Part shown: positions 27,561 to 62,067 of the stretch, piece by piece
Layout: every line of letters starts with the position of its first letter
Numbering within the stretch: the stretch's first letter is position 1
Assembly (NCBI RefSeq): GCF_023705585.1
Contig: NZ_BOQE01000001.1
Coordinates: 2,109,001-2,173,000, forward strand
From: Collibacillus ludicampi
Lineage (GTDB): Bacteria > Bacillota > Bacilli > Tumebacillales > BOQE01
Direction: 5' to 3'
DNA: 64,000 nucleotides
Notes under the pieces: generated by a model
The model's database searches: none
Seen by the model: the letters and a program-made list of their open reading frames with translations, nothing else
Told to the model about the DNA's origin: nothing
Program-made: the position numbers and the translations under genes

Positions 27561-28685
27561 TTGGATCTTCTCATTCAAAACGGAACGGTCGCGGATCCTT
27601 CTCAACGCATTTTTCGTTCTCTTGATGTGGGAGTGAAAAACGGAAAAATTGTTGGACTCTTTGAACCGGGGGCGATTTCCGCGGAATCGGCGAAGGTAAG
27701 AATCGACGCTTCCGGATGTTTGGTGACCCCCGGGTTCATTGACCTTCACGTCCATGTATTTGAACATCGGACAGAGTTAGGAATTCACGCGGATCTTGTC
27801 GGGGTGAAGCAAGGGGTGACTACGATTGTAGACGCCGGAAGTACAGGCTCTCGTGATTTCCAATCATTCCTTACCGAAGTTGTTGAAAAAAACCAAACGC
27901 AAGTGCTGTTGTGGATCAATATCGCTTCCCAAGGACTTTGTGATGGCCGTTCGGAATTATCGGATCTGAGTATGTTGAAGCCGGATGAAACAGAAGCGTT
28001 AATCAATCAATACCCGGTGATACGGGGGATTAAAGTCCGCATGAGTCGTTCGGTCGTGAAGGGAAACGGCTTACAGCCTTTAGTCATTGCCAAGAAACTC
28101 GCACAAAAAGTGGGACTCCCTCTTATGGTCCATATAGGAAACGCTCCGCCTCGACTTGGCGAGATTCTGGATCTGCTCGATGCTGGTGATGTTGTTACAC
28201 ATGCTTTTCATGGGAAGGAGGGCGGGATCGTAGATGAAAATGGTTCAATACTTCCGGAAGCGGAGAGAGCACTCAAACGAGGTGTACTTTTTGATGTAGG
28301 ACATGGCAGTTCAAGTTTCAGCTTTCGAACCATGAAGCGGGCAAAAGAACTCAACGTTTTTCCTCACACAATCAGTACAGATATTTATTGTGAGAACATA
28401 AATGGTCCCGTTTTCAGCCTGGTTACAACGATGACCAAATTGTTATCCCTTGGTTTTACTGTTGAGGAAGTGATTGAAGCCTCGACGTGGAGACCTGCGA
28501 AAGTGTTGGGCTTATCGAACGAAATCGGAACTTTGAAAGAACAAACGATTGCCGATATAACCATTCTAAAAATGATTCCGGAACCGATTACCTTGATCGA
28601 TTCTGAAAATGAAAAGATGGTGGGCAATCCTCATTTGCTGGTTCAATACACGATAAAAGCAGGAAAGGTTTTGAAACATGTTTGA
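27561..28685 (+). CDS. amidohydrolase/deacetylase-family metallohydrolase
   Basis: The 374-residue enzyme has the dihydroorotase/NagA-like amidohydrolase fold. Metal ligands are visible: DLHVHVFEH (about residue 62), an acidic/Lys region at VRMSRSVVKGNG, VHIGNAPP (about 190), THAFHGK (about 214) and TDIYCENINGP with the catalytic Asp (about 274). TTG start with AGGAGG at ideal spacing. It lies next to DgaE/DgaF-type genes, which suggests deacylation of an N-acylated amino-sugar acid before the lyase step. The substrate is inferred from context only. Confidence 0.85.
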   Translation: MDLLIQNGTVADPSQRIFRSLDVGVKNGKIVGLFEPGAISAESAKVRIDASGCLVTPGFIDLHVHVFEHRTELGIHADLVGVKQGVTTIVDAGSTGSRDFQSFLTEVVEKNQTQVLLWINIASQGLCDGRSELSDLSMLKPDETEALINQYPVIRGIKVRMSRSVVKGNGLQPLVIAKKLAQKVGLPLMVHIGNAPPRLGEILDLLDAGDVVTHAFHGKEGGIVDENGSILPEAERALKRGVLFDVGHGSSSFSFRTMKRAKELNVFPHTISTDIYCENINGPVFSLVTTMTKLLSLGFTVEEVIEASTWRPAKVLGLSNEIGTLKEQTIADITILKMIPEPITLIDSENEKMVGNPHLLVQYTIKAGKVLKHV

Positions 28686-29037
28686 TGATCTGATTCAAGA
28701 GATTTCGAAAAAAAATCCATTATCCTTACAAGAAAAGAATGAATTAATTTCATTGCTAGTGAATGTAAAAGAAAAGACAGAAAAGATCTCGCTTTCTTTT
28801 ACAAAGGAACGATGGGTAGCGATAGCCGTTCACTTGTTGGCGTTTATGCGGCGGGTGAAACAAGGTGAATCTTTGCCCCCCATTGAACAAGAGATATGGG
28901 ACCAAGTCAGCCAAGAGATGAAAGATGTGAGCCAACAAGTACTGCAGACTTATGGCATGGACAAAAATCAAAATATTGAAAATACCGAAATATTCTTGCT
29001 TGCCGTTCATTTCGAAACGGCAAAATTTGAACAATAA
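28678..29037 (+). CDS. stand-alone PRD-like domain protein
   Basis: The 119-residue, all-helical protein matches a single PRD domain: NELISLLVNVKEKTE, a conserved RWVAIAVHLLAFMRRV with the candidate phospho-His, and a final ILLAVHFETAK-like segment with a second His. It overlaps the amidohydrolase gene by 8 bp. In related operons this small PRD protein always travels with the SFCGS/DUF431x genes. It may be a phosphorylation sensor or a subunit of the transport system. Confidence 0.75.
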   Translation: MFDDLIQEISKKNPLSLQEKNELISLLVNVKEKTEKISLSFTKERWVAIAVHLLAFMRRVKQGESLPPIEQEIWDQVSQEMKDVSQQVLQTYGMDKNQNIENTEIFLLAVHFETAKFEQ

Positions 29038-29051
29038 CGGGGGAAGAAGGA

Positions 29052-29417
29052 ATGGAACGAAAAGTAAAAGTGGTTATCGGTGACCGATTGGGAAAAGGTC
29101 AGAAAGTGGCAAAAGGAGTTGAGTCGGCAGGTGGAATACCTATTTTGATTCCGGGTGTGGGTGCAGACATGAAGGTTGGGGACTTCATGCATAAAGAAGG
29201 GGCTGACTTTGGCATTTCCTTCTGTGGAAGTGGTGGTGCGGGAGCATTAACCGCGAAAACGAAATATCATTACCCGGTTGAATTTGGCCTTCGTTCGATT
29301 GAAGCGGGTATTACTGCTTTGCGGGAGGGAAAGAAAGTCATTGGCTTCGGGTTTATGGACACGGAAGAGTTGGGCAGGCGGCTCACCGAAGAGTATATCA
29401 AAATCATAGGAGGTTAA
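29052..29417 (+). CDS. glycine-rich SFCGS-family protein
   Basis: This 121-residue protein carries the family signature SFCGSGGAGALTAKTKY (about residues 57-73). The Cys in a Gly-rich loop after a beta strand resembles the phosphocysteine loop of PTS EIIB domains (compare CGTGRGTA in the operon's own regulator). The N-terminus has a Rossmann-like strand-loop (VKVVIGDRLGKGQKVAKGV). No membrane segment. I infer a cytosolic, possibly phosphocarrier, part of the transport module; no member's function is known to me. Confidence 0.8.
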   Translation: MERKVKVVIGDRLGKGQKVAKGVESAGGIPILIPGVGADMKVGDFMHKEGADFGISFCGSGGAGALTAKTKYHYPVEFGLRSIEAGITALREGKKVIGFGFMDTEELGRRLTEEYIKIIGG

Positions 29418-29419
29418 CG

Positions 29420-29758
29420 ATGTACAAATCTTTCACCCACACGCTAACACTAAGTGGAGTCGGAGAAACAAAGGAAGCGGCATTCAATAAAATTTTTTCA
29501 CAGATTCAGAGGAAAATCGCACAAGACATCCCAGGAATCCCCTTGCGGATCGAACCACAAAATGTGGAAATCATTCGTGCAAAGGAAACGATATACACGG
29601 AGCGATTCATGGGAATTTTCTTTCCGCGAAAACGAACACGCTATGAGATTACAGCACAAATTACCGTTCAATTGCGTATCATAGATGTTTCGAAGATTGA
29701 ATTTGAAAGAGAAGAAGAGCATCTGACAAGGGTCCAGCACTTGATTCGTATGGAATGA
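29420..29758 (+). CDS. DUF4312-family protein
   Basis: The 112-residue soluble protein starts 2 bp after the SFCGS gene, with an AGGAGG site. It has the family pattern FTHTLTLSGVGETKEAAFNKIFSQIQ and a later ERFMGIFFPRKRTRYEI segment. It has a mixed alpha/beta make-up and no membrane span. Function is unknown. Its fixed place between SFCGS and DUF4311 suggests it is a subunit of the same complex. Confidence 0.8.
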   Translation: MYKSFTHTLTLSGVGETKEAAFNKIFSQIQRKIAQDIPGIPLRIEPQNVEIIRAKETIYTERFMGIFFPRKRTRYEITAQITVQLRIIDVSKIEFEREEEHLTRVQHLIRME

Positions 29759-29788
29759 AGAAAAATATCATGATATAGGAGGAATGAA

Positions 29789-30574
29789 ATGGAAACTCTA
29801 GTCATTCTATTGGAATCCATTATTATTGGAGCACTCGTTGGATTTGGTGTGGGTGCCGGTGCCGCGAGAATGTTCCATGCCCCTACTGTACAGGGGATGG
29901 GAGCGTTCCGAACCTATGGGGAATTGAACGCCTGTGAAGGGGATCCTATTGCACACTTTTCATTTGGTCTAGGGTTTTTGTTCAACTCATGGGCTTCCAT
30001 TGTAGGTGCGGGAGCTTTTACTCAAGACGTGGAGCACCGGATTATTCCAAACTGGGCGGCTGCCGCATTGTTATGGAAAAACAGAAATGTCGAAGAAACA
30101 TTGCACAATCCGAAAAAAATGGCTTTTGCGGGTGCGATCGTGGGAATGATCGTCGTTACTGTTATGAACTCAACGGCCGCTTCGATTCCCGAATCGATGC
30201 AAAAGGTAGCCACGGCGGTATTAGTCCCCGCTGCAAACTGGTTGATTAACCCGATCATGCCGATTGTATTCTGGACGGCGGCGATGGATGCCGGAAAACG
30301 TACCGGCGTGTGGGGGACTGTTCTTGGTGGAGTGGCACATTTGATCATGGGGAACGCTGTACCGGGCATTGTGTTGGGGATTTTAATAGGAAAAGGGATC
30401 GACGACAGCGGTTGGAACCGAATTACGAAAACACTCGTGACTGCTGTGATTTTACTGTTTATCCTCAGCGGATTCTTCCGCGGTTTTGATGTGAAATTGT
30501 TGCAAAGCATTCATGTAACAGTTCCTCAAGGGCTCATTGAATTTCATAAGCTCTTTGGTTCCGAGGTGAAGTAA
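29789..30574 (+). CDS. DUF4311-family integral membrane protein
   Basis: The 261-residue protein has about six to seven hydrophobic spans: an N-terminal Gly-rich span (IIIGALVGFGVGAGAARMF), a central NACEGDPIAHFSFGLGFLFNSWAS motif that is well ordered around charged and His residues, and several Ala/Gly-rich spans to the end. SD AGGAGG. With DUF4310 it forms the membrane part of the proposed transporter. No transport activity has been assigned to this family as far as I know. Confidence 0.85.
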   Translation: METLVILLESIIIGALVGFGVGAGAARMFHAPTVQGMGAFRTYGELNACEGDPIAHFSFGLGFLFNSWASIVGAGAFTQDVEHRIIPNWAAAALLWKNRNVEETLHNPKKMAFAGAIVGMIVVTVMNSTAASIPESMQKVATAVLVPAANWLINPIMPIVFWTAAMDAGKRTGVWGTVLGGVAHLIMGNAVPGIVLGILIGKGIDDSGWNRITKTLVTAVILLFILSGFFRGFDVKLLQSIHVTVPQGLIEFHKLFGSEVK

Positions 30575-30575
30575 A

Positions 30576-31223
30576 ATGGATTATCAAAATAGAGGTTTTT
30601 GGTATTCAGAAAATGCTTTCATCTTATTTGTCGCTTGTCTCTCTGCCGGTATCTTCGCAGGAACTCATATGTACTATGTCTACCATGTTGGCGCATTCAA
30701 TGATATCGCGGTTGTTGCTTTACTGGCTGCCGGAATAAAAGGAGGAAGCTTCGGTGCAGCCGCCGCTTTTGGGGCGAGCTTCCTATTCGCCCGTGTGCTG
30801 GAAGGCCCTCTCGTTGGAATCCTGGATATCGGTGGGGCCTTGCAGACCGGAGTGGGAATTGGTATTCCGGCTATCATGCTGGCCGCGGGCATTACGGGTC
30901 CATTAGCTTCTTTTCCTCTCGCTCTTTTGACAGGTGCAGTGATCGGTGCAGTCATTGGGCTTATCATCGTTCTCATCCGGAAATTCACAATCAATTCAGC
31001 AAACTCCACCTTTGGGGCTGATGTCATGATGGGGGCGGGTAACGCGGCGGGCCGTTACCTGGGACCACTGATTGTGATTGCTGCTATTATGGCATCCATT
31101 CCAGTAGGAATTGGAGCAACAGTAGGAGCGGCAATTTTCTATGCTTATAAGAAACCGATCGCTGGAGGAGCCATTTTGGGAGCCATGATCATGGGAGCCA
31201 TTTTCCCAATCGTTACAAAATAA
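30576..31223 (+). CDS. DUF4310-family integral membrane protein
   Basis: The 215-residue protein starts 1 bp after the DUF4311 stop. It has about five to six Gly/Ala-rich spans and repeated GG/AGI patterns (LLAAGIKGGSFGAAAAFGASFL, GADVMMGAGNAAGRYLGPL). It probably pairs with DUF4311 to form a channel or carrier. The split into two small membrane proteins plus two small soluble ones recalls the C/D and A/B division of multi-subunit PTS permeases, though I see no sequence identity to them. Confidence 0.85.
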   Translation: MDYQNRGFWYSENAFILFVACLSAGIFAGTHMYYVYHVGAFNDIAVVALLAAGIKGGSFGAAAAFGASFLFARVLEGPLVGILDIGGALQTGVGIGIPAIMLAAGITGPLASFPLALLTGAVIGAVIGLIIVLIRKFTINSANSTFGADVMMGAGNAAGRYLGPLIVIAAIMASIPVGIGATVGAAIFYAYKKPIAGGAILGAMIMGAIFPIVTK

Positions 31224-31272
31224 TTACAAATTGGAGCTGGATTTCAGTCGTAAAATTTCGAGAGGTGTTATG

Positions 31273-32391
31273 ATGGGTATTTATCAGGACTTCGGATTAA
31301 AACAAATCATCAATGCAAGCGGAAAAATGACGGCACTAGGCGCAAGCGCAGTCCATCCGGAAGTCGCAAAGGCGCTCTCGGATGCCTCGATGGACTATGT
31401 GGATATTCACGAACTTATGCTGGCAGCCGGTAAAATCATTGCAACCGTTACAGGTGCAGAGGATGGCTGCCCCACTTCAGGGGCCGCTGGCGGAATCGCG
31501 ATCAGCGTGGCTGCCGTCATTGCAGGAACCCATTTGACCAGGATTGAAAAGCTTCCATTTTCAGATGGACTCAAAAATGAGATTGTGATCCAGAAAGGGC
31601 ATGCGATTCATTTTGGGGCTTCGATCACGCAGATGATTTCCTTGGGTGGAGGAAAAGTAGTAGAAGTCGGTCAAGCCAATCATGTGGAAAAGAAACATAT
31701 CATGGAAGCCATCAATGAGCAAACGGCAGCTATTTTTTATGTAAAATCGCATCATGCCGTTCAAAAGGGTATGCAATCACTGGAAACGATGATTTCGATC
31801 GCAAAGGAATATCAAATTCCGATCATTGTTGATGCGGCTGCCGAAGAAGATCTGCGCAAATATATTGCCATGGGAGCGGATCTCGTGATTTACAGTGGCG
31901 GTAAAGCGATTGAAGGACCTACTTCCGGGTTTATCTGTGGCCGCGCCTCTTTGATTGAAGCTTGCCGTGCCCAATATAAAGGAATAGGCCGGGCGATGAA
32001 AGTAGGAAAGGAAGCGATTGTAGGGTTATTGACAGCTCTTCGGCGTTACGGATTCAAGGAAGATTTATCTCAGGAACAGCGGCGGCGGATGTTATGGTTG
32101 ATCGAACAGATAAAAGACATCAACGGAATTGAAGGAAGCATTGTACAAGATGAAGCAGGGCGCGACATTTACAGGGCCCAACTCAAGATTGATTCGAAAG
32201 TACTTGGAATGAGCGCGCATGAATTGATCCGTCGTTTGGAAGAAGGCAATCCCGCCATCTATACGCGGAATCATTATGCCAATATAGGGATTATCAATAT
32301 AGATCCAAGACCCTTGTTACCGGGTCAAGAACAATTGATTGTCAAACGTATAAAAGAAATCGTGGAGGAGACATATGAACATTCAATTTAA
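31273..32391 (+). CDS. DgaE-family PLP-dependent ammonia-lyase
   Basis: The 372-residue enzyme is of the SelA-like fold type I PLP group, DgaE branch. Residues seen: QIINASGKMTALGAS, TSGAAGGIAISVAA, IIVDAAAEEDL (the Asp that pairs with the PLP pyridine) and IYSGGKAIEGPTSGF with the Schiff-base Lys (about residue 216). DgaE releases ammonia from D-glucosaminate-6-phosphate to give KDGP. I chose ATG 31273 because GAGGTG lies 5 bases upstream; an upstream in-frame codon has no ribosome site. It is not SelA: it sits in a sugar-acid operon and overlaps dgaF. Confidence 0.86.
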   Translation: MGIYQDFGLKQIINASGKMTALGASAVHPEVAKALSDASMDYVDIHELMLAAGKIIATVTGAEDGCPTSGAAGGIAISVAAVIAGTHLTRIEKLPFSDGLKNEIVIQKGHAIHFGASITQMISLGGGKVVEVGQANHVEKKHIMEAINEQTAAIFYVKSHHAVQKGMQSLETMISIAKEYQIPIIVDAAAEEDLRKYIAMGADLVIYSGGKAIEGPTSGFICGRASLIEACRAQYKGIGRAMKVGKEAIVGLLTALRRYGFKEDLSQEQRRRMLWLIEQIKDINGIEGSIVQDEAGRDIYRAQLKIDSKVLGMSAHELIRRLEEGNPAIYTRNHYANIGIINIDPRPLLPGQEQLIVKRIKEIVEETYEHSI

Positions 32392-33094
32392 TGTACTCGC
32401 AAAAAATGTACAAAATGCAAAGGAAATCATGGAAGTCACCGACGGTCACGCTTTGATCGGAATCATGGTAAAACATTTTCCCACTGTTGATGATGCTGTC
32501 AAGACTGTACAGGAATTTCAATCGGAAAATATTCCGGTTTCGGTTGGATTGGGAGCCGGGGATCCGGCACAGTGGGAGAGAGTCGTTCAAGTTTCCGTGC
32601 GTACGAAACCGGCCCATGTCAATCAAATATTTCCTGCCGCTGGTTATACGATCGCTTCCTTGCGAAGCGTCAAGAGTGAACAAACCATTGTGAATGCAAT
32701 GATCACACCGAGTGGGACACCCGGCAAGGTGTTTATTTCGACAGGACCTGTCAGTCAGCAATATCAGGAACCTGTTTCCTGTGATCTGGCTGCAGCCTTG
32801 CTGGCAGAGATCGGTGTTCCATCCATCAAGTTTTATCCTATTGAAGGTAAAAAGAGATTAGATGAAGTGGCTGAGATGGTTAAAGCTGCAGTGCGTCATC
32901 AGATCTATATTTTTGAACCGACCGGGGGGATTGACGTGGATTCGTTACCGGAGATTGTAAAGGTTTGCGCGGAACACGGCGCAAAGCGAATCATTCCCCA
33001 CATCTACACGTCCATTATTGATAAAGAAACGGGATTCACCCGCATCGAGGATGTTCAGGCATTGGCCCAATCTGTATCCAAATTGACACTTTAG
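32375..33094 (+). CDS. KDGP aldolase (DgaF family)
   Basis: The 239-residue enzyme matches the DgaF branch of KDGP aldolases, which split 2-keto-3-deoxy-6-phosphogluconate into pyruvate and glyceraldehyde-3-phosphate. It has a TIM-barrel pattern: NIPVSVGLGAGDPAQW, PAHVNQIFPAAGYT, VNAMITPSGTPGKVFISTGP, SIKFYPIEGKKR (candidate Schiff-base Lys) and FEPTGGID. ATG with GGAGGAG; it overlaps dgaE by 17 bp. It is the last enzyme of the operon. Confidence 0.86.
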   Translation: MNIQFNVLAKNVQNAKEIMEVTDGHALIGIMVKHFPTVDDAVKTVQEFQSENIPVSVGLGAGDPAQWERVVQVSVRTKPAHVNQIFPAAGYTIASLRSVKSEQTIVNAMITPSGTPGKVFISTGPVSQQYQEPVSCDLAAALLAEIGVPSIKFYPIEGKKRLDEVAEMVKAAVRHQIYIFEPTGGIDVDSLPEIVKVCAEHGAKRIIPHIYTSIIDKETGFTRIEDVQALAQSVSKLTL

Positions 33095-47985: not shown

Positions 47986-49455
47986 ATGCGAAAGATGATG
48001 TACATTGACGGAAAATGGGTTTCGGCACGTTCTGGCGAAACGAAGGAAATCATCAACCCTTACAACCAGGAGGTGATTGCCGTTGTTCCGCGGGGTGACC
48101 GCGAAGATGCACGCGATGCAATCCGGGCTGCTCGAAAAGCGTTCGACGAAGGGGAATGGCGGAAAGTAACGGCTCCCGAAAGGGCAGACATGCTGTTTCA
48201 GGTAGCGGAGAAAATCAGGAAGTATAAGCAAGAGTTGGCGGAACTGGAAACGTTGAATACGGGAAAAACACTCACCGAAAGCCTAGCGGACATGGATGGC
48301 ATTGCCGCCGTGTTCCAATATTATGCGGGATTGGCAGACAAGGACGGAGGCATGATCATCGAATCACCTATACCGAACTCCAGCAGCCGGATGGTGAGGG
48401 AGCCGGTTGGCGTTTGCGGACAGATCACGCCCTGGAACTATCCCTTATTGCAAGCATCTTGGAAACTCGCCCCGGCGTTGGCGGCAGGCAACACCGTAGT
48501 CGTCAAACCGAGTGAAATTACCCCTCTGACGACCTTAAGAATCGCGGAGATTTTTGAGGAGGTGGGCTTTCCTCCCGGCGTGGTCAACGTAGTGCTAGGG
48601 CCTGGCTCAACGGTCGGACAAGAAATAGCGGAAAATCACGATGTCGATTTGATTTCTTTCACCGGTGGCGGTGTCGCCGGCCGCCAGATTATGCAGGCGG
48701 CGGCAGGCAACTTCAAGAAAATATCGCTTGAATTGGGAGGAAAAAACCCCAACATCGTGTTTGCCGATGCCGATTTTGATACTGCGGTGGATTATGCGCT
48801 GAATGCTGTATTTTTCCATGCCGGACAGGTCTGTTCAGCCGGTGCGAGGCTTCTTGTGCAGTCATCGATCCACGACAGATTTGTGGAAGCGGTTGTGGAG
48901 CAGGCGAAACACATTCGCCTCGGGAATGGATTTGATGAAAAAACGCAAATGGGGCCGGTGATTTCAGCCGAACATTTGGCGAGCATCGAAAAATACATTC
49001 AAACGGGCATCCAGGAAGGGGCCAAATTGGTTTTAGGAGGCAAAAGGCCAGCCGATCCCGAACTGCAAAAAGGATTTTTTATTGAACCTACCATTTTCAT
49101 CAATTGCCATACGAATATGAGGATCGTGCAGGAAGAGTCGTTTGGGCCGGTTCTCACGGTTGAAACGTTTGACACCGAGGAAGAAGCGGTTCGCCTGGCG
49201 AACGACACGATTTACGGTTTGGCGGGGGCAGTTTGGACGCAAGACATGAATCGGGCGGAGCGGGTATCTCGACAGTTGCGGATGGGTACAGTTTGGATCA
49301 ACGATTACCACCCCTATTTCCCGCAAGCGCCGTGGGGAGGTTACAAACAGTCTGGCATCGGGCGGGAATTGTGCCATGTCGGATTGGAAGAGTATACGGA
49401 AATCAAACATGTGTATATGAACTTGGATCCCAAACCCATGGGATGGTTTCAATAA
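47986..49455 (+). CDS. gbsA: betaine aldehyde dehydrogenase-like ALDH
   Basis: The 489-residue enzyme is a full ALDH with the betaine-aldehyde-dehydrogenase look: the MYIDGKWV start, ITPWNYPLLQASWKLAPALAAGNT, FTGGGVAGR, the catalytic Glu in LELGGKNP and the catalytic Cys in FHAGQVCSAGARLLVQ (about residue 285). It would oxidise betaine aldehyde to glycine betaine with NAD+. The choline-dehydrogenase-like gene follows 50 bp later. SD GAGGGGG. The symbol follows the B. subtilis pair gbsA-gbsB and rests on family likeness plus gene order. Confidence 0.82.
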   Translation: MRKMMYIDGKWVSARSGETKEIINPYNQEVIAVVPRGDREDARDAIRAARKAFDEGEWRKVTAPERADMLFQVAEKIRKYKQELAELETLNTGKTLTESLADMDGIAAVFQYYAGLADKDGGMIIESPIPNSSSRMVREPVGVCGQITPWNYPLLQASWKLAPALAAGNTVVVKPSEITPLTTLRIAEIFEEVGFPPGVVNVVLGPGSTVGQEIAENHDVDLISFTGGGVAGRQIMQAAAGNFKKISLELGGKNPNIVFADADFDTAVDYALNAVFFHAGQVCSAGARLLVQSSIHDRFVEAVVEQAKHIRLGNGFDEKTQMGPVISAEHLASIEKYIQTGIQEGAKLVLGGKRPADPELQKGFFIEPTIFINCHTNMRIVQEESFGPVLTVETFDTEEEAVRLANDTIYGLAGAVWTQDMNRAERVSRQLRMGTVWINDYHPYFPQAPWGGYKQSGIGRELCHVGLEEYTEIKHVYMNLDPKPMGWFQ

Positions 49456-49505
49456 AAATCAGTCTGACCAAATCTATCTGAAAAGTGAAAGGAGAGGAAA
49501 CGACT

Positions 49506-50708
49506 ATGTTCATGCGGTTTGAAAGAATGGGTAGACTCAAAAGTTTTGAAATGCCGACAGTGGTCAAACACGGGATCGGTGCAGTCAGGAACACCGGGGA
49601 AGAAGTGAAAAATTTGGGTGTTTCGAGAGTATTGCTTGTCACCGACCCGGGGGTAAGAAAGGTCGGATTAATTGAGCCGGTGCTGATCAGCCTGCAAGAA
49701 GCGAAAATCGATGTGGTGATCTTTGATGAAGTAGAACCGAACCCTTCGATTCATGTCGTCGCAAGAGGAACGGAAATGTATCTGAAAAACAAATGCGACG
49801 GATTGGTTGCGGTAGGCGGCGGAAGCTCGATGGATACGGCGAAAGCAATTGGAGTCGAGGTGGTGCACGGAGAACCTGTGCTGAATTATGAAGCGGCGGA
49901 AGGAAAGAAACCGCTTGAAAAACGGATTCCTCCGTTGACCACCATCCCCACCACCGCGGGAACAGGCAGCGAAGTCACGCAGTGGGCTGTCATCACAGAT
50001 CCCTATCGCAAATTCAAATTCAATGTGGGCGGTCCGCTGATCGCCGCTCATCTGACGATTATTGATCCTGAACTGCATCTTTCGATGCCTCCGCGCATTA
50101 CAGCTGCTACCGGAATTGACGCGCTGTCTCATGCGATTGAGTGCTATACATGCCACTATGCGCAGCCGATGACGGATGCGGTGGCGTTATTGGCAATGGA
50201 ATACATTGCAAAATATTTGCGTCGCGCATATGCAAACGGGCATGACATCGAAGCGCGTTACGGCATGGCTAAGGCCGCGATGCTGGCCGGATTGTCGTAC
50301 GGCAGCGAATCGGCCGGCGCCGCCCATGCGATGGCACAAACGCTTGGAGGCATTATTCCGGTGGCGCACGGTGAATGCGTAGCAGCCATGTTGGGACCGG
50401 TGATGGAATACAACTGGATGGGAGAACCGGAAAAATTCGCCCGCATCGCTCAGGCATTAGGGGTAAATATCCATGGCATGAGCGTTGAAGAAGCGGCGAA
50501 AGCGGCGGTGCGCGAGGTGTACAAACTGGTGCAAGACGTTCAGATTCCAAGCTTGGAGGAGCAGGGAGTTCCGCGGGAAATGATTCCCGAATTGGCCGAA
50601 GCCGCTTTCCACGACCCGCAAACAGTGGGGAATCCCCGTGACATTAACGTTAAGGGATACGAGTGGATCTATCGCCGTTGCTTCAATCTCGAACCGTGTA
50701 CGGTTTGA
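49506..50708 (+). CDS. gbsB: iron-type alcohol dehydrogenase, choline dehydrogenase (GbsB)-like
   Basis: The 400-residue enzyme is a group III (Fe/Zn) alcohol dehydrogenase: GGGSSMDTAKAIG for NAD binding, PTTAGTGSEVT, and metal ligands in GIDALSHAIECY and GIIPVAHGECVA. Position next to a betaine aldehyde dehydrogenase points to choline oxidation, as for GbsB in Bacillus. ATG at 49506 with AAGGAGAGG. Two hairpins (50745-50818) end the unit. Confidence 0.8.
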   Translation: MFMRFERMGRLKSFEMPTVVKHGIGAVRNTGEEVKNLGVSRVLLVTDPGVRKVGLIEPVLISLQEAKIDVVIFDEVEPNPSIHVVARGTEMYLKNKCDGLVAVGGGSSMDTAKAIGVEVVHGEPVLNYEAAEGKKPLEKRIPPLTTIPTTAGTGSEVTQWAVITDPYRKFKFNVGGPLIAAHLTIIDPELHLSMPPRITAATGIDALSHAIECYTCHYAQPMTDAVALLAMEYIAKYLRRAYANGHDIEARYGMAKAAMLAGLSYGSESAGAAHAMAQTLGGIIPVAHGECVAAMLGPVMEYNWMGEPEKFARIAQALGVNIHGMSVEEAAKAAVREVYKLVQDVQIPSLEEQGVPREMIPELAEAAFHDPQTVGNPRDINVKGYEWIYRRCFNLEPCTV

Positions 50709-50744: not shown

Positions 50745-50818
50745 AACCGGCCTTTCGGGGCCGGTTTCCACTTTCTTTTCAGATCGAGTAGGAAGGGAAT
50801 AGCCCCTTCCTGCTCGAT
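50745..50818 (+). terminator. two consecutive terminator hairpins
   Basis: AACCGGCC/GGCCGGTT (50745-50766), and then ATCGAGTAGGAAGGG pairing with CCCTTCCTGCTCGAT (50783-50818, one T-G pair), followed by a T-rich tract. Confidence 0.8.
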
Positions 50819-50899
50819 TGCTTCTTTTTCATCCGAATCCGTAGCGGGTGTTGATCATCGGCGGCAGAGATGCGGAGTCGCCCGCGAAGTGACAAAACA

Positions 50900-51724
50900 C
50901 TACAGCAACCCCTGATCCTTCATCGCATCGTGCAGAACCTTGTAACCCTCAATGCCTTCGCCATCAGCCGGCACCCATTCATTGAGCCCTTCCATCTCCA
51001 TCATCTTGCGGATCTCCGGCTCTGCAGGATCCATCGCAAACAGCAGCTCGCTGAATCGTTTCCCGAGCGCGTCGTCAAAATCGGGCAGAACTGTAAAGTT
51101 GCAATGGGAATAGCCGGGGGAAGTCCACACCGATTTGATCTCATCCGAAGAAACCATTCCCTGTTCCAGCATCCGAATCCACGTCGATTCACCGATCGCG
51201 CCAGCATCCGCTTCCCCCTGTTTCAGCGCACGCAACACCTCATATTCGCTGGTGCCTGTGTCCCCATGTTTGCCGACATCGAGGTTAAATCGGATGAGTT
51301 GCAAATCGGTTTCCGGGTCGATCTCGTTTTGTTTCAGAAAATGATAGGGCAAAATCGCAGCCTGCGCAGAGTCGGCACTGCCCAGAGCGAACCGCTTGCC
51401 TTTCAGATCCTGCAAGGAATCGATTCCACGATCGGCGCGCGCGACGATTTTCGAAGTAAAGTGGATGTCCGTATCGCGCATTCCCAGCACTTTCGCTTTG
51501 CCTTCCAGCGTCTCCTGTATCCGCACGTACGCCACGTTGGTATTCCATGCGATATCGATGAAACGGTTCAGCAACGCATCGACCTGGGCTTCATAATTGG
51601 AGAACAAAACATAATCGATCGGGAAGTCGTTTTTCTGATAATAATCGCGGATGATATCCCAGATTGCAATCACCTTCGGATCGTAGGCAACCGCTCCGAC
51701 CAACAGTGCATGTTTCTTGCTCAT
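50900..51724 (-). CDS. PhnD-like substrate-binding-fold protein without signal peptide
   Basis: The 274-residue protein has the PhnD/SsuA-type periplasmic-binding fold: YDPKVIAIWDIIRDYY, EAQVDALLNRFIDIAWNTNVAYV, SLQDLKGKRFALGSADSAQA, GEADAGAIGESTWIRM. It begins directly at the domain, with no signal peptide or lipobox, so it should be cytosolic. No ABC permease or ATPase gene is near. It is the last gene of a three-gene operon with a flavin enzyme and a di-iron fusion protein. It may bind a ligand for that pathway or be a catalytic relative (compare decarboxylase/THI5-like use of this fold). GGAGGA precedes the ATG. Confidence 0.8.
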   Translation of the reverse strand: MSKKHALLVGAVAYDPKVIAIWDIIRDYYQKNDFPIDYVLFSNYEAQVDALLNRFIDIAWNTNVAYVRIQETLEGKAKVLGMRDTDIHFTSKIVARADRGIDSLQDLKGKRFALGSADSAQAAILPYHFLKQNEIDPETDLQLIRFNLDVGKHGDTGTSEYEVLRALKQGEADAGAIGESTWIRMLEQGMVSSDEIKSVWTSPGYSHCNFTVLPDFDDALGKRFSELLFAMDPAEPEIRKMMEMEGLNEWVPADGEGIEGYKVLHDAMKDQGLL

Positions 51725-51758
51725 GAACCATTCCTCCTCCGTGTGTCGATCTGTACGC

Positions 51759-52886
51759 CTAGAACAACGGGATTCCCGCCACCGATTTGCCGACCCATTC
51801 CTTTAACACCTCGGTGGTCGGCGCCATCACCGTTCCCGCCCGAGCGTCACGCAAATACCGTTCCACCGGCAGTTGCTGCGTGTAGCCTTGACCGCCGCAT
51901 ACTTGCATCGCCAGGTTCGTGACTTTGATTGCAGACTCAGAAGCCAGCACTTTTGCTTGCATTACGCGAAGCACAGCGTCTTCCTGTCCTTCAATTGCTG
52001 CTTTCGACGCATTTCGGGCAAACAAGGAAGCTGCTTCCACCGCACCGAACATATCGGACAGATAAAATTGAATCGCCTGGATATCCGCCAAAGACCTTCC
52101 ATCCGCGTATTTTCTCGTTTTCGCATGCTGCAGGGCAGTCAGGTAAGCTCCTCTCGCCAGGCCGACATTGACGCCCGACACGCCCAAGATAAAGAAAGGA
52201 GCCACCACCTCAAAAATCAGTCCCATCCCGTCGCCTTCCGCTCCGACCAGTTGCGCATGGGGCACGCGCACATTTTCCATCACCAAAGAGATGCTATTGT
52301 TCCCTCGCAGCCCGATGCCGTTCCACTCTCCTTCAAAACGGACACCCGGCGTGTCTCGATCGACGATGAACATGTTCAATCCTTTGTCAGCAGTTGGCGC
52401 ATTGGTAAGAACGAGCAGAAAATCAGCGTGATCTCCGTTCGTCACAAAGCTTTTCCGGCCGTTTAGAACGAACGTATCTTCGTCCAATGCCGCCCGGATT
52501 TCCGGCGTATAAAAATGGGCTCCTGTGCCTGTCTCGCTGAAAGCCAGCGTCCCGATTTTCATTCCTTCGGCGATAGGGCGCAGATAGCGCTCTTTTTGAT
52601 CCTCGTTTGCCTTTGCGGCGACCACCATCGTGGCGCAGGAATGCATCAGATAACACATCGCTGTCGATCCGCAGCTTTCTGCAATCGTTTCGGTGACCGC
52701 CACCAAATCTTCCAGCGTTCCGCCCAAACCTCCTGCTTCCTGCGGCACGAGCAAACCGAGCAAGCCCGCTTTTCCAAACGCTTTGAACGCTTCCTTAGGG
52801 AACCGCTTGGTGCGGTCGATTTCCGCCGCCAGAGGTGCTATGACTTCGCCGGTGATTTGTTTCGCCAGTTCCAAGACGGATGCCAT
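51759..52886 (-). CDS. acyl-CoA dehydrogenase-fold flavoprotein lacking the usual catalytic Glu
   Basis: The 375-residue protein has the whole acyl-CoA dehydrogenase fold: AFKAFGKAGLLGLLVPQEAGG, CYLMHSCATMVV, AFSETGTGAHFYTPEIRA, NGRKSFVTNGDHADFLLV and CGGQGYTQQLPVERYLRDAR. The segment that normally reads YEGT with the catalytic Glu reads MAPT here (ARAGTVMAPTTEVL). So a classical alpha-beta dehydrogenation is doubtful; a flavin monooxygenase-like or other reaction is possible. The ATG at 52886 is chosen for AAAGGAG; a GTG at 52907 that overlaps the upstream stop is an alternative. Confidence 0.85.
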   Translation of the reverse strand: MASVLELAKQITGEVIAPLAAEIDRTKRFPKEAFKAFGKAGLLGLLVPQEAGGLGGTLEDLVAVTETIAESCGSTAMCYLMHSCATMVVAAKANEDQKERYLRPIAEGMKIGTLAFSETGTGAHFYTPEIRAALDEDTFVLNGRKSFVTNGDHADFLLVLTNAPTADKGLNMFIVDRDTPGVRFEGEWNGIGLRGNNSISLVMENVRVPHAQLVGAEGDGMGLIFEVVAPFFILGVSGVNVGLARGAYLTALQHAKTRKYADGRSLADIQAIQFYLSDMFGAVEAASLFARNASKAAIEGQEDAVLRVMQAKVLASESAIKVTNLAMQVCGGQGYTQQLPVERYLRDARAGTVMAPTTEVLKEWVGKSVAGIPLF

Positions 52887-52903
52887 ATGGATCCCGCTCC
52901 TTT

Positions 52904-54190
52904 TCACATAAAATTTGGTGTATGCTCCATTGAAATTTTCTCTGCAGTGGACCGATCGATGCCGATTTGCAGCATGCGTTGAATCCGGTGTTCGTACATC
53001 GCCTCGCGCAATTGTTTGACCCTTTCAAAGCCGATTTTCAGCTGTTCTGGGGTGCGGCCTCCACCCGCGAGTATCGCGAGCGCTTCCATCAGTTGCGAGT
53101 TCTCGTTGGTGCCTGCGCCTGCCAGAAATTCGTTCCGTTCTTCGGCCGCTTGCACCAGCGCTCCTACCAGCTTCGGGTTACGCATCAACATGTGGCGAAC
53201 GTGCCCGATCCCGTAGGCGACGTGGCGGCCTTCGTCGATTTTTGCCAAATGGACAATCTGTTCGGTGACCGGATCTGGCGCGTGATCCTCGATGAAGTTC
53301 AGCAGGTCGAGAAAGGTGCCCTCGCCTAGCACATGCAGCAAAAACGAGGACTTGAAATAATCCTCCTGAATAAACAAACTGTGCAGCGACCGCTCGGTGA
53401 GCGTGGAGGAATATTGCAGTCCACCGCCGTTGGCGAGCGCCCGTTTCATAAACGCTTCGATGTGCCGCGCCTCGTCCTGCACCAAAGTGGACAGGTACAT
53501 CAAGACTTCAATGTAGTGAGGATGGATCCGGGCCATGAACTTGGCAGGGATGTATAGAGCCGAGTACTCGTTCTCCGCCAGAAAGGTCATGATCTGACAG
53601 ACGGCCCACTCCATGTCATCAGACAGCGGCCGCAACTGGTTCCAAGCGATGTCGGTCGTCGCATTCCACTGGCTCACTTTCGCCTGTTCGTACAGATCGA
53701 GCAGATTGTCCGCCCAGACATCCTCTTTGCGAATCAGGTCAAAACCGAAATCCGGTATGCCGGGCTCCGCCACCGCTCCCCTCGGGACAAACCCGATATA
53801 AGCGGGTGCTTGTTCCAGCAGATCGCCGACGCGTCCCTGAAACCAATCCCGAATATCCAGCCTGCCGCCCGTCCGCAAGGGAATTCGGGTGCCCCAGTCC
53901 GGTTTCTCACCGGTAGACAGGTGCGTGTTACGGAGAAAAAAACGGTAGTGGTCGCCGCCATCCATCACATTCAACAACGAAATCTTATGTAGTCGGCACC
54001 AACTGCGCAAATCGTCTTTCAAATGCGGATTTGTACTGACAATCTCCAATAACTGATTGTCTCCGAGCCGCTGCAGCGCATTTTTGATCAGCAAAAACGT
54101 TTCCGAACTGCTCGGCAAATGGCCGAGTTCAAGCCTGTCTTCCGGCGTGACGCCCAGCAACCCGTATTGTTCCGGCGAGGATTCGCTCAT
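52904..54190 (-). CDS. TusA-like domain fused to a ferritin-like di-iron protein
   Basis: The 428-residue protein begins with a TusA-like domain (residues about 18-90: LGHLPSSSETFLLIKNALQRL, QLLEIVSTNPHLKDDLRSWCRLH, LLNVMDGGDHYRFFLR). The CPxP cysteine of true TusA is missing (GHLPSS). A linker follows, then a ferritin-like four-helix region (about 190-400) with the di-iron pattern E, ExxH, E, ExxH: ENEYSALYI, QDEARHIEAF, GEGTFLDLLN, IDEGRHVAYG. This resembles R2-like or PaaA/AurF-type oxygenases. It is the first gene of a three-gene operon. I know no characterised protein with this architecture; the reaction is unknown. Confidence 0.82.
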   Translation of the reverse strand: MSESSPEQYGLLGVTPEDRLELGHLPSSSETFLLIKNALQRLGDNQLLEIVSTNPHLKDDLRSWCRLHKISLLNVMDGGDHYRFFLRNTHLSTGEKPDWGTRIPLRTGGRLDIRDWFQGRVGDLLEQAPAYIGFVPRGAVAEPGIPDFGFDLIRKEDVWADNLLDLYEQAKVSQWNATTDIAWNQLRPLSDDMEWAVCQIMTFLAENEYSALYIPAKFMARIHPHYIEVLMYLSTLVQDEARHIEAFMKRALANGGGLQYSSTLTERSLHSLFIQEDYFKSSFLLHVLGEGTFLDLLNFIEDHAPDPVTEQIVHLAKIDEGRHVAYGIGHVRHMLMRNPKLVGALVQAAEERNEFLAGAGTNENSQLMEALAILAGGGRTPEQLKIGFERVKQLREAMYEHRIQRMLQIGIDRSTAEKISMEHTPNFM

Positions 54191-54247
54191 TGAAGCCCCT
54201 CCTTTCTTTATAACAAAATTCTATCATATTCATAACTATTAGTAAAT

Positions 54248-56954: not shown

Positions 56955-58262
56955 GTGAAGCTAGAAATCGGGAATTTTTATGTACGGGACGTGGTGTTTG
57001 GAGATAAAACCGCTTACCAAAACGGAGTGCTGACGATTGACAAGGAAGAGGCGATCCGCGTTGTTTGCGAGGACGAACATATCACCGATGTTGACATCGT
57101 AATCGCCAAACCCGGTGACCGCGTGCGAATCACGCCGGTGAAAGAAGCGATTGAACCGCGCTGCAAGGTGTCAGGTGGGGTACTGTTTCCGGGAGCGCTC
57201 AATAAGTTGATCCCTGCCGGCACAGGCCGCACACACGCATTAAAAGGCAGTTGCGTGTTGGCGGTCGGCAAACGATGGGGGGGATTCCAGGACGGTTTGA
57301 TCGATATGAGCGGACCGGGCGCAAAACAAACGATGTTCTCGCAATTGATCAATATCTGTCTGGTTGCCGACACAGATGAAGAGTTTGAACGACATGAACA
57401 GCAAAAGAAAAACAGGGCGTTGCGGTGGGCGGGAATGCGCCTCGCCGAATACATCGGAAATTGTGTTCGGGATTTGGAACCGGAAGAAGTGGAGACGTAT
57501 GAATTACCGCCGCTTGCCCAACGCAGTGAGGATTTGCAACAATTGCCCGGCGTCGTCTATGTCTTGCAACTTCAATCGCAAATGCTGGAGGAAGGCTACA
57601 ACGCGCTGGTGTACGGGTGGGACGCCAATCACATGCTGCCTACCTTGATGCACCCGAACGAACTGTTGGACGGCGCCGTGATATCAGGTAGTTTCATGCC
57701 GTCTTCATCCAAAATATCGACTTACCAGCATGTCAATAATGCAACGATTAAGCGTTTGCTGAGAGAGCACGGAAAAACCATTAATTTTCTGGGTGTGATT
57801 GTTTCCAACCTGAATGTGCAATTGGAGGAAAAGGTCCGATCCGCCCTGTTCGTCAGGCAGTTGGCAACGTCGCTGGGAGCCCAGGGAGCGATCGTATGCG
57901 AGGAAGGGTACGGAAATCCGGACGCCGATTTTATCGCCGTGATTAACGAGTTGGAGGATGCGGGGATCAAAGTAGTCGGCATCACCAATGAATGCACGGG
58001 CCGCGATGGCCGTTCACAACCGCTGGTGGATTTATCGGAAAAGGCGGATGCGATCGTGTCGACCGGAAATGTTTCGCAGCTTTTGCGGCTACCGCCGATG
58101 GAAAAAGTGATCGGTGATTTGGAAGCGCTGGCGAGAGACGGCAATTCCGGAGGTTGGGAAGGATGCGTCAAGCAAGACGGTTCGATTGAAATGGAAAATA
58201 ACGGAATGTTTTGTTCGGATGCAAACACGGGGGATTATTACAAAACGGTTGTCGAGTATTAG
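56955..58262 (+). CDS. grdE: glycine/sarcosine/betaine reductase component B, GrdE-type proprotein
   Basis: The 435-residue protein aligns with GrdE/GrdG/GrdH along its length: the EIGNFYVRDVVFGDKTAY start, GRTHALKGSCVLAVGKRWGG, NHMLPTLMHPNELLDGAVISG, EHGKTINFLGVIVSNLNV and GNPDADFIAVINELEDAGIKVVGITNECTGRDG. Protein B binds the substrate through a carbonyl made by proprotein cleavage. In glycine-specific GrdE the cleavage is at an Asn-Cys near residue 242; here the equivalent stretch, SGSFMPSSSK (residues 244-253), has only Ser. GTG start with AGGGGGG. Substrate may be betaine or sarcosine rather than glycine. Confidence 0.88.
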   Translation: MKLEIGNFYVRDVVFGDKTAYQNGVLTIDKEEAIRVVCEDEHITDVDIVIAKPGDRVRITPVKEAIEPRCKVSGGVLFPGALNKLIPAGTGRTHALKGSCVLAVGKRWGGFQDGLIDMSGPGAKQTMFSQLINICLVADTDEEFERHEQQKKNRALRWAGMRLAEYIGNCVRDLEPEEVETYELPPLAQRSEDLQQLPGVVYVLQLQSQMLEEGYNALVYGWDANHMLPTLMHPNELLDGAVISGSFMPSSSKISTYQHVNNATIKRLLREHGKTINFLGVIVSNLNVQLEEKVRSALFVRQLATSLGAQGAIVCEEGYGNPDADFIAVINELEDAGIKVVGITNECTGRDGRSQPLVDLSEKADAIVSTGNVSQLLRLPPMEKVIGDLEALARDGNSGGWEGCVKQDGSIEMENNGMFCSDANTGDYYKTVVEY

Positions 58263-58274
58263 GAGGTGAACCGG

Positions 58275-59588
58275 GTGAAGAAAGCTGTCCATTATATCAA
58301 TCAATTTTTCGGACAAATTGGTGGGGAAGAGAAAGCGGACTATGAACCTGAAATCAGGGAAGGGGTTGTGGGCCCCGGTTTGCTGTTGAAAAATCTGCTG
58401 GCGCCTGACATCGATGTCACCCATACCATCATTTGTGGCGACAATTTTTTCAGCTCGAAGAAAGAGACGGCGATCGAAACGATCCTCGGTTTTCTGGCCG
58501 ACAAAGAGTTTGATCTGTTTATAGCGGGACCGGCTTTTTTGGCGGGAAGGTATGGATTTGCCTGCGGCGAAATTTGCAAAGCCGTAGAGGAGCGGTTTGG
58601 CGTCCCGACCATCACCAGTATGAACGTCGAAAACCCAGCAGTCGAAATGTTCCATAAGCACATGTACATTTTCCCCGGCGGAAACAGTGCGGCTGCCATG
58701 CGCAAAGATCTGTCGACAGTGGCAGGTTTCGCGAAAAAGCTGATAAATGGAGCCCAACTTGGCCCGGCCAGGCAGGAGGGGTATTTTCCGCGTGGCATCC
58801 GCTTGGAGTCGTTTGTCAATCCGCTGGTGCCAGCGGCGGACCGGGCAGTTGACATGCTTTTGAAAAAACTGAACGGAGAACCGTTTGAGACGGAGATGCC
58901 GATGCCGAAAGTGGATCGCGTACCGATCGCCCCACCTGTGGATGTAAGCAGGGCGATCGTGGCTCTAGTGAGTTCCGGCGGCATTGTTCCGGCAGGGAAT
59001 CCCGACCGGATTCAGTCCGCGTCCGCCACGAAATGGGGAAAATACAACATCGCCGGATTGGAATCGTTACAGCCCGGCGAGTGGCAGACGATTCACGCCG
59101 GATTTGATCCATCTTTTGCAAACGAAAATCCCAACGTCATCGCGCCTGTGGACGCTTTGCGTGAATACGAAAGAGAAGGGAAAATCGGCAAAATTCACGA
59201 TTATATCTATTGCACCGTCGGAACCGGGACATCCCAGGCGGACGCAAGCAGGATGGGCAGAGAAATCGCCCAACAATTGCACGAAGCAAACGTTTCGGCT
59301 GTGATTCTCACTTCCACCTGAGGGACCTGTACTCGTTGCGGTGCAACGATCACAAAGGAAATTGAGCGAACCGGGATTCCGGTTGTGCAAATGGCGAATC
59401 TGGTGTCGATTGCAAAAACAGTTGGCGCCAACCGGATTGTACCGACCGTTGCGGTTCCCCATCCGCTGGGAAATCCGCTCCTTACAGCTGAAGAGGAGTG
59501 GAAGATGCGGAAACACCGGGTCGGTGTCGCGCTGGAAGCTTTGGCGACCGAGATCGAGCAACCGACGGTCTTTGAAGTCCGCATCTGA
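58275..59588 (+). CDS. grdB: selenoprotein B of glycine/sarcosine/betaine reductase (GrdB-type), Sec at codon 349
   Basis: The frame runs through a TGA at 59319-59321 to a real stop at 59586-59588, giving 437 residues, the usual length. The TGA lies in LTST-U-GTCTRCGAT, where this family has selenocysteine followed by a CxxC. After it the protein continues in family style: KEIERTGIPVVQMANLVSIAK, TVGANRIVPTVAVPHPLGNP, TVFE. It forms protein B with GrdE and passes a carboxymethyl group to GrdA. GTG at 58275 with AGGAGG. A conventional gene caller would stop it at 59321 and lose the last 88 residues. Confidence 0.93.
59319..59348 (+). promoter_or_regulatory. grdB UGA codon and SECIS-like hairpin
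   Basis: CGTTGC (59334-59339) pairs with GCAACG (59343-59348) around a GGT loop. The loop begins 21 nt after the first base of the TGA, within the window used by bacterial SECIS elements. Confidence 0.75.
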
Positions 59589-59618
59589 CGGAACATTTTG
59601 CTGAAAGGGGTGTCATGA

Positions 59619-62063
<2,445 letters not shown>

Positions 62064-62067
<4 letters not shown>

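What the first reader, a model, noticed from the sequence alone, without database searches (positions are those of the whole stretch)
50900..54190. Three-gene operon of unknown chemistry
A di-iron fusion protein, a flavoprotein of acyl-CoA dehydrogenase fold and a cytosolic PhnD-like binding protein are transcribed together with tight spacing. Two redox/oxygen-type enzymes plus a ligand-binding protein look like a dedicated oxidative pathway, perhaps for a C-N or C-P compound. It is the best candidate here for an undescribed enzyme system.
Basis: inference. Interest (0 to 1): 0.8.

Follow-up and report, generated by a model that had tools for sequence, protein, structure and literature searches.

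The report
Conserved oxidative gene trio, substrate unknown
Three neighbouring bacterial genes, encoding an iron-dependent oxidase-like protein, a flavin enzyme that has lost its usual catalytic residue, and a transporter-type binding protein that stays inside the cell, travel together in several bacterial phyla and probably form an undescribed oxidative enzyme system.

Summary
On the minus strand, 54190-50900 encodes a TusA-like/R2-like di-iron fusion (FERR), an acyl-CoA-dehydrogenase-fold flavoprotein (ACAD) and a leaderless PhnD-fold protein (SBP), spaced 17 nt (or overlapping by 4) and 34 nt. The trio is conserved: all 20 genomes found with FERR carry SBP beside it and 19 ACAD (the twentieth contig ends there), in Bacillota, Helicobacteraceae, Armatimonadetes and Acidobacteria by record title; six of the 20 were found through FERR alone. 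An ACAD-SBP pair without FERR is related to mycobacterial Rv1679-Rv1680, which have NCBIfam names but no function that I found. ACAD lacks the dehydrogenase glutamate in 25 of 25 rows; SBP has lost the oxyanion motif and has invariant DS, HGD and HC in 26 of 26; FERR keeps its candidate di-iron ligands, but its TusA-like domain lacks the sulfur-carrier cysteine. The C-P reading fits poorly and the choline context is not conserved. I favour oxidation of a small S-, Se- or N-containing metabolite. selD occurs in 21 of 22 cassette or pair genomes, a modest association given base rates of 30-66%. Substrate and reaction are unproven.

The parts
52904..54190 (-). FERR: N-terminal TusA-like domain (residues 31-87) without the sulfur-carrier cysteine, joined to an R2lox/VlmB-like four-helix di-iron domain (about 147-424) with candidate ligands E206 or E208, E240xxH243, E290 and E320xxH323; conserved H-T-x-N-x-M C-terminus
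   Evidence: Pfam PF01206 32.3 bits; NF006200 R2-like ligand-binding oxidase 44 bits, below its cut-off of 194; these residues invariant in the 13 rows and in every row that reaches them; model pLDDT 76 with Z 23.2 to VlmB 8wvr and 22.4 to R2lox
51759..52886 (-). ACAD: acyl-CoA-dehydrogenase-fold flavoprotein with MAP in place of the YEG that carries the catalytic glutamate (a start at GTG 52907 is also possible)
   Evidence: PF00441/PF02771/PF02770 above cut-off; NF049984 Rv1679_FadE16 332 bits, below its cut-off of 600; motif in 16 of 16 rows and 25 of 25; alignment to 5ol2_C
50900..51724 (-). SBP: cytosolic PhnD/transferrin-type substrate-binding-protein fold with a remodelled cleft (W60 N61, R83 D84 x D86, D118 S119, H153 G154 D155, E160, H207 C208)
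   Evidence: PF12974 132 bits; NF049985 Rv1680 318 bits, below its cut-off of 400; model pLDDT 93.3; Z 26.5 to 7s6g PhnD; motifs in 26 of 26 rows
54218..54246 (-). promoter-like site (TTTACT-17-TAGAAT with TG before the second hexamer) upstream of FERR; one of five on this strand between 54218 and 54402
   Evidence: 7 promoter-like sites on both strands of the region, 2.6 expected; a consensus match only
50782..50819 (+). 16-pair terminator-like hairpin between the convergent gbsB and SBP genes; reported with a T-rich tail on the + strand only, so it fits gbsB better than SBP

Best explanation
The trio is a self-contained, patchily spread cassette that oxidises one small metabolite in the cytosol. 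Shown: the three genes are an inherited unit; FERR keeps a full set of candidate di-iron ligands; ACAD lacks the catalytic base of true acyl-CoA dehydrogenases; SBP has no leader, and its cleft differs strongly from that of oxyanion-binding relatives. Inferred: SBP binds the substrate, and possibly catalyses, through its D/HGD/HC residues. ACAD then uses its flavin for something other than alpha,beta-dehydrogenation (flavin-peroxide oxygenation, or cleavage of a C-S, C-Se or C-N bond, as recalled for base-less relatives such as 3-sulfinopropionyl-CoA desulfinase). FERR uses O2 for a further oxidation, its degenerate TusA domain serving as a docking or handling module, not as a persulfide carrier. 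The likeliest substrate class is a small organosulfur, organoselenium or hydroxylamine/amine compound; which one is not known.
For: Operon and co-inheritance: 20 of 20 FERR genomes with SBP, 19 with ACAD; gaps from -41 to 116 nt outside the frame-broken L023; two gene orders; distance matrices of the three proteins correlate at r 0.93-0.98 over 17 loci. Candidate di-iron ligands conserved; fold neighbours are O2-activating enzymes: VlmB azoxy synthase, R2lox and aldehyde-deformylating oxygenase, Z 22-23. ACAD base lost in 25 of 25; after Rv1679 its best NCBIfam matches are acryloyl-CoA reductase, cyclohexane-1-carbonyl-CoA dehydrogenase and 3-sulfinopropanoyl-CoA desulfinase. SBP pocket remodelled in 26 of 26. 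S/Se hints: TusA-like domain; apart from Rv1680 the nearest SBP model is the putative selenate-binding TIGR04553, 123 bits; sub-threshold SBP relatives lie 2-7 kb from selD on the same contig in G030, G031, G032 and G036, 4 of the 26 genomes with weak matches only; partner genes of the ACAD-SBP pair elsewhere include OsmC-like, MetE-like and DoxX-annotated proteins; an alkanesulfonate monooxygenase gene lies 3.4 kb from the trio in L028; selD lies about 6 kb from the pair in Miltoncostaea; selD in 21 of 22 cassette or pair genomes.
Against: No substrate or electron donor is evident from the trio itself. The selD association is weak within groups: hypergeometric p 0.023 (5 genomes, order of G064) and 0.080 (6 genomes, phylum of G072), and selD is common there with or without the cassette (186/392, 196/297), so shared ancestry may explain it. 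One trio genome (G070, a MAG) has no selD. Mycobacterium tuberculosis carries Rv1678-Rv1681 but, as I recall, no selD, so the pair at least can work without selenium. The TusA cysteine is lost, which argues against sulfur carriage. In the HMMER alignment with R2lox the first ligand position falls on N207, between two invariant glutamates (ligand numbering recalled). The ACAD structure was not modelled. RD-x-D is shared with one ABC binding protein, so not every conserved SBP residue is new.
Confidence: 0.4

Rival explanations
1. The trio serves selenium (or sulfur) supply: it frees selenide or sulfide from an organoselenium or organosulfur compound, feeding SelD and the selenoproteins of the host. 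This is the narrow form of the best explanation.
For: selD in 21 of 22 cassette or pair genomes; SBP scores higher for TIGR04553 than for PhnD in the window (123 versus 71 bits), L034 and L040, and a protein annotated as TIGR04553 type sits with transporter genes, mnmH and selD in Sphaerotilus; weak SBP relatives near selD in G030, G031, G032 (with selA) and G036; selD near the pair in Miltoncostaea; an ATP-grasp gene and a CUAEP-tail radical SAM selenoprotein downstream of the trio in G082; selA next to selD in the window genome.
Against: Base rates of selD are 47%, 66% and 30%. In the acidobacterial L059, TIGR04553 scores below PhnD (41.8 versus 44.3 bits). The CUAEP protein passes its cut-off in only 3 of 25 genomes or records, on another contig than the trio in two of them. 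selA, selB and selU queries found no such gene in the flanks of the cassette loci held, apart from a weak selA match to a DgaE-type gene in the window.
Confidence: 0.2
2. The trio makes a small natural product or cofactor with an N-O or N-N bond: a VlmH-like flavin N-hydroxylase plus a VlmB-like di-iron azoxy synthase.
For: Best aligned structure of FERR is VlmB, 8wvr, Z 23.2 over 256 residues; an ATP-grasp gene lies beside the trio in G082.
Against: R2lox (22.4) and aldehyde-deformylating oxygenase (22.1) are tied with VlmB. ACAD matches Acyl-CoA_dh_1 better than Acyl-CoA_dh_2 (87 versus 64 bits), and its better NCBIfam matches are dehydrogenases and a desulfinase. Among neighbours I saw no ligase or flavin reductase by eye; this was not searched with models.
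Confidence: 0.15
3. A detoxification or thiol/peroxide-stress unit: the proteins remove a reactive compound (peroxide, sulfenate, reactive aldehyde or similar).
For: Self-contained patchy cassette without transporter; OsmC-like, carboxymuconolactone-decarboxylase-family, glutaredoxin-domain and CcdA/disulfide-oxidoreductase genes near the ACAD-SBP pair in other genomes.
Against: tblastn with the OsmC-like, carboxymuconolactone-decarboxylase-like and DoxX-like partners found no match in the trio loci then held (glutaredoxin and CcdA were not used as queries).
Confidence: 0.12
4. One reading: catabolism of a phosphonate or a choline-derived amine.
For: PhnD-type fold; gbsB and a sarcosine/betaine reductase operon lie on either side in the window.
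Against: STSG motif lost; gbsB found in none of the other cassette flanks tested, gbsA only as a 39% identical aldehyde dehydrogenase 4.7 kb off in G008.
Confidence: 0.06

Closest known systems
Rv1678-Rv1681 cassette of Mycobacterium and relatives (NCBIfam NF049986, NF049984, NF049985, NF049973)
   Same: ACAD (35-36% identical) and SBP (44-45%) are homologous, adjacent and in the same order on Mycolicibacterium vanbaalenii and Rhodococcus opacus plasmids
   Different: Those have a Rv1678-type (in Rhodococcus DoxX-annotated) membrane protein and a Rv1681-type radical SAM protein in place of FERR; the window proteins score below the curated cut-offs. No function found in print
R2-like ligand-binding oxidase (R2lox) and VlmB azoxy synthase
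   Same: ferritin-like fold, Z 22-23, and two ExxH motifs
   Different: 17-19% identity over the alignment; N-terminal TusA-like domain and conserved C-terminal tail are extra; NF006200 cut-off not reached
PhnD / PtxB / HtxB / ArrX / AioX binding proteins
   Same: whole fold, Z 22-26
   Different: no leader, no ABC gene adjacent in the window, STSG lost, HGD and HC present
Acyl-CoA dehydrogenases, including 3-sulfinopropionyl-CoA desulfinase
   Same: three-domain family; E 2e-60 to the solved 5ol2_C
   Different: glutamate base absent, MAP motif instead
Thi5 HMP-P synthase and other enzymes built on the binding-protein fold
   Same: Thi5 among Foldseek matches; cytosolic use of the fold (recalled)
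   Different: only a fold-level match (TM about 0.5); active-site residues not compared

Membership tests
Rv1679 family acyl-CoA dehydrogenase (NF049984) | score over curated cut-off (600 bits) | tested here: not met
   332 bits
Rv1680 family SBP-like protein (NF049985) | score over curated cut-off (400 bits) | tested here: not met
   318 bits; no genome of 61 over the cut-off
Rv1678-Rv1681 cassette | ACAD and SBP adjacent, same order | tested here: met
Rv1678-Rv1681 cassette | Rv1678-type membrane protein and Rv1681-type radical SAM protein alongside | tested here: not met
   window neighbours are DUF5698/DUF2179, MFS and gbsB genes
R2-like ligand-binding oxidase | two ExxH plus two further Glu ligands | tested here: met
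   the first Glu may be E206 or E208, both invariant
R2-like ligand-binding oxidase | curated family score (NF006200, 194 bits) | tested here: not met
   44 bits
R2-like ligand-binding oxidase | Mn/Fe cofactor and Tyr-Val ether cross-link (recalled) | not testable with these tools
   needs protein
VlmB azoxy synthase | closest structure clearly above other di-iron oxidases | tested here: inconclusive
   Z 23.2 against 22.4 and 22.1, tied
TusA sulfurtransferase | domain score over Pfam cut-off | tested here: met
   32.3 versus 28.6 bits, residues 31-87
TusA sulfurtransferase | CPxP catalytic cysteine (motif and its place recalled) | tested here: not met
   no cysteine at that place in the 19 rows that cover it; three rows have one four or more residues earlier
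Acyl-CoA dehydrogenase | Pfam N-terminal, middle and C-terminal domains | tested here: met
Acyl-CoA dehydrogenase | catalytic glutamate in the C-terminal domain (position recalled; aligned to 5ol2_C) | tested here: not met
   MAP for YEG in 25 of 25 rows. The alternative site of isovaleryl-type enzymes (recalled) shows no conserved Glu in block 232-256
PhnD-type ABC binding protein | fold | tested here: met
   Z 26.5
PhnD-type ABC binding protein | leader peptide, adjacent ABC genes, STSG motif | tested here: not met
   TIGR03431 70.6 bits, cut-off 261
Anti-phage defence systems (PADLOC) | match of any of the three proteins | tested here: not met
   0 families at E up to 0.01

The most novel reading that the evidence does not exclude
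The cytosolic SBP is an enzyme and not a binder: its fold has been rebuilt with invariant Asp, His-Gly-Asp and His-Cys residues. With the base-less flavoprotein and the di-iron/TusA fusion it carries out a new oxidative route that makes or breaks a small organoselenium or organosulfur metabolite, linked to SelD-using bacteria, with a parallel version in mycobacteria.
Probability: 0.13. Interest if true: 0.85.

Novelty: new variant of a known kind. Interest (0 to 1): 0.58.

Why it matters
It links three well-known protein folds, each altered at its functional site, into one conserved unit of unknown chemistry, and ties it to the named but, as far as I could find, undescribed Rv1678-Rv1681 region of mycobacteria. 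The Bacillota trios give a tractable way in. If the SBP proves to be catalytic, it adds to the few enzymes built on the periplasmic-binding-protein fold.

Tried and rejected
Phosphonate and choline readings: set aside for lack of conserved context and because of the changed pocket. Anti-phage defence: no PADLOC match. Riboswitch upstream as a clue to the substrate: Rfam at gathering thresholds found none beside the cassette in the window and 15 further loci (some loci have short flanks). CUAEP radical SAM partner: over its cut-off in 3 of 25 genomes or records and near the trio in one, so not a general part. Plasmid copies of FERR: none at E 1e-10. SBP relatives in a 244-genome draw of the phylum of G073: only G073 itself at E 1e-40. 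Literature: Rv1678 0 papers; Rv1680 3 papers in the listing, of which I read one passage, in PMC8562490, that calls it a putative phosphonate transporter component; Rv1679/FadE16 2 papers in the listing, of which I read passages of PMC5017210, a hypoxia proteome. For Rv1681/moeX 30 of 316 papers were listed; the titles and abstract starts concern tuberculosis diagnostics, vaccines, drug-resistance variation or unrelated words. Searches for CUAEP, R2lox with TusA, and selenium with acyl-CoA dehydrogenase showed nothing on the trio in their listings. PMC2922099 (passages only) treats other peptide clusters. For the azoxy search only the listing was seen. A neighbourhood scan in Actinomycetota chromosomes could not be run, as no genome handle was at hand. 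A third hypergeometric figure (0.069) assumes that the 61 genomes all lie in the draw; the printed lists do not prove it, so I give it no weight.
Full report
Observation. Upstream is a 130-nt gap to a divergent ORF, with several promoter-like sites; downstream a hairpin lies between SBP and the convergent gbsB. The neighbours are an aldehyde dehydrogenase ORF (gbsA-like by eye) and gbsB (NF053866, 743 bits), a DUF5698/DUF2179 gene, an MFS transporter and a sarcosine/betaine reductase operon.

Conservation. A scan of the genome collection with SBP gave 13 loci. FERR is adjacent in 12 and ACAD in 12; L034 has only ACAD-SBP, and L033 starts at a contig end just before SBP. Searches with a FERR profile gave 6 of 297 genomes in the phylum of G072 and 5 of 392 in the order of G064; each draw contained genomes already known (1 and 4), and the six new ones all carry ACAD and SBP beside FERR on the same strand. 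In all, 20 genomes have FERR, 20 have SBP beside it, and 19 also ACAD (G072 is cut). The order is FERR-ACAD-SBP in Bacillota and the two Helicobacteraceae MAGs, and ACAD-SBP-FERR in the Armatimonadetes MAG and in the five complete acidobacterial loci. The cassette is rare and patchy (2.0% and 1.3% of the two draws), while the three proteins diverge in step (r 0.96, 0.98, 0.93 over 17 loci). That fits inheritance or transfer as a unit, but shared species history would also raise these values. FERR is frame-broken in L023 and L028, and ACAD in L023.

The pair without FERR. ACAD and SBP occur together without FERR in G073 (L034), G046 (with an OsmC-like gene) and G044 (with MetE-like and OsmC-like genes), where a FERR profile found only short matches within its N-terminal third, and on three actinobacterial plasmids, where only the plasmid records were searched. 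In Mycolicibacterium vanbaalenii the pair stands between a Rv1678-type membrane protein and a Rv1681-type radical SAM protein, and all four score over the NCBIfam cut-offs that bear the M. tuberculosis names; Rhodococcus opacus has the same set, its radical SAM gene seen only as tblastn pieces. So the window trio is a relative of that cassette in which FERR takes the place of the other two. The window ACAD and SBP do not reach the cut-offs (332 of 600, 318 of 400 bits).

Sites. FERR: the invariant acids and histidines E206, E208, E240xxH243, E290 and E320xxH323 are kept in all 13 rows and in all rows that reach them. Which of E206 and E208 is the first ligand is open, as N207 falls on the R2lox ligand in the alignment (ligand numbering recalled). 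The C-terminus reads HTPNFM in 14 and HTRN(F/L)M in 5 of the 19 rows that reach it. The TusA-like domain has no cysteine at the place of the CPxP motif (recalled) in any of 19 rows, though a W-C pair later in the domain is kept in 18 of 19. ACAD: the C-terminal motif that in 5ol2_C reads IYEGTSE reads (V/I)MAP(T/S) in 25 of 25, so the usual base is gone; the block that holds the alternative base of isovaleryl-type enzymes (recalled) shows no conserved acid. SBP: over 26 rows WN, RD-x-D, DS, HGD, a following E and HC do not vary. Two ABC binding proteins aligned with them have WL, SSTSG and DY at the matching places and lack the HGD segment; one of the two shares RD-x-D. The SBP cleft therefore differs from a phosphonate or oxyanion site in most liganding positions that I can recall for PhnD. 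I could not measure distances, since no model coordinates were in the script folders.

Structures. The FERR model (pLDDT 76, under 50 at 1-10, 92-102, 113-155 and 157-159) aligns over residues 147-424 with VlmB (Z 23.2, rmsd 3.0, 256 residues), R2lox (22.4) and aldehyde-deformylating oxygenase (22.1), a tie. The SBP model (pLDDT 93) aligns with PhnD 7s6g (Z 26.5, rmsd 3.5, 259 residues), HtxB, ArrX, PtxB and AioX; Thi5 is a distant Foldseek match.

Selenium test. The window genome has selD with one in-frame TGA and selA beside it, and the window itself has a SECIS element in the betaine reductase operon. selD was found in 21 of 22 genomes with the cassette or the pair (19 with FERR, 3 without), missing only in the MAG G070; G771, not in that list, also has it. 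Background: 186 of 392, 196 of 297 and 76 of 250 genomes. Within the first two draws the chance that all cassette genomes have selD is 0.023 (5 genomes) and 0.080 (6 genomes); the centres and some others were known beforehand. selD is present in all 14 genomes of the window's own order listed (G000-G013), so G000 and G008 add nothing. Weak relatives of SBP lie 2-7 kb from selD in G030, G031, G032 and G036 (4 of the 26 genomes with weak matches only), which bears on the wider SBP family and not on the cassette. The association is suggestive and no more.

Mechanism. The most economical reading is an oxidative unit in which SBP holds a small cytosolic substrate, ACAD does flavin chemistry other than acyl-CoA dehydrogenation, and FERR activates O2. 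The sequence changes are shown; the reaction, the order of steps and the substrate are inference. The S/Se leaning rests on the TusA-like domain, the TIGR04553 resemblance, the partner genes of the pair, one alkanesulfonate monooxygenase 3.4 kb away in L028 and selD; the N-oxidation alternative rests on VlmB.

Verdict. The specific C-P and choline readings are not supported. New variant of a named but, as far as I could find, undescribed kind.

Noticed in passing
window 56955-62067, +: Sarcosine/betaine reductase operon (GrdG-like and GrdH-like, both under their own NCBIfam cut-offs; TIGR01918 selenoprotein B over it; thioredoxin reductase; component C beta over its cut-off) with a SECIS_4 element at 59322-59359 right after the stop codon that ends the GrdH-like reading frame.
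   Followed up: partly
window 47986-50708, +: Aldehyde dehydrogenase ORF (gbsA-like by eye) and gbsB (choline dehydrogenase, NF053866 743 bits): choline oxidation to betaine near betaine reductase in one region.
   Followed up: no
window 15038-15205, +: M-box (magnesium) riboswitch, 159 bits, upstream of an ORF that looks by eye like an NRAMP-type metal transporter (15695-17320).
   Followed up: no
window 25683-33094, +: DgaE-family ammonia-lyase gene (TIGR01437, 498 bits, at 31231-32391) inside a run of small genes after what looks by eye like a PRD-type regulator.
   Followed up: no
L059:3125-5891, -: An ATP-grasp gene and a CUAEP-tail radical SAM selenoprotein gene (NF040546, 672 bits; in-frame TGA) follow the trio in an acidobacterial genome; the radical SAM protein also scores 345 bits (cut-off 450) for the arsinothricin enzyme ArsL.
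   Followed up: partly
L040:1-8843: Miltoncostaea plasmid: selD lies on the opposite strand, one gene away from a run with DM13, DoxX-annotated, Rv1681-like radical SAM, glycosyltransferase and DUF2064/NUDIX genes that leads to the ACAD-SBP pair.
   Followed up: partly
L028:10234-12803, -: Alkanesulfonate monooxygenase gene (TIGR03565, 612 bits, over its cut-off) and sulfonate-type ABC transporter genes 3.4 kb or more from the trio in Bacillus sp. DNRA2 (the ATPase is under its cut-off and the permease is by eye).
   Followed up: partly
L007 (G032) and G030, G031, G036: Weak SBP relatives lie 2-7 kb from selD on the same contig, in L007 also beside selA: probably selenium-linked binding proteins of the wider family.
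   Followed up: partly
L023 and L028: FERR is broken by a frame change in Paenibacillus sp. P25 (with ACAD) and in Bacillus sp. DNRA2: decay or sequencing error, not decided.
   Followed up: no
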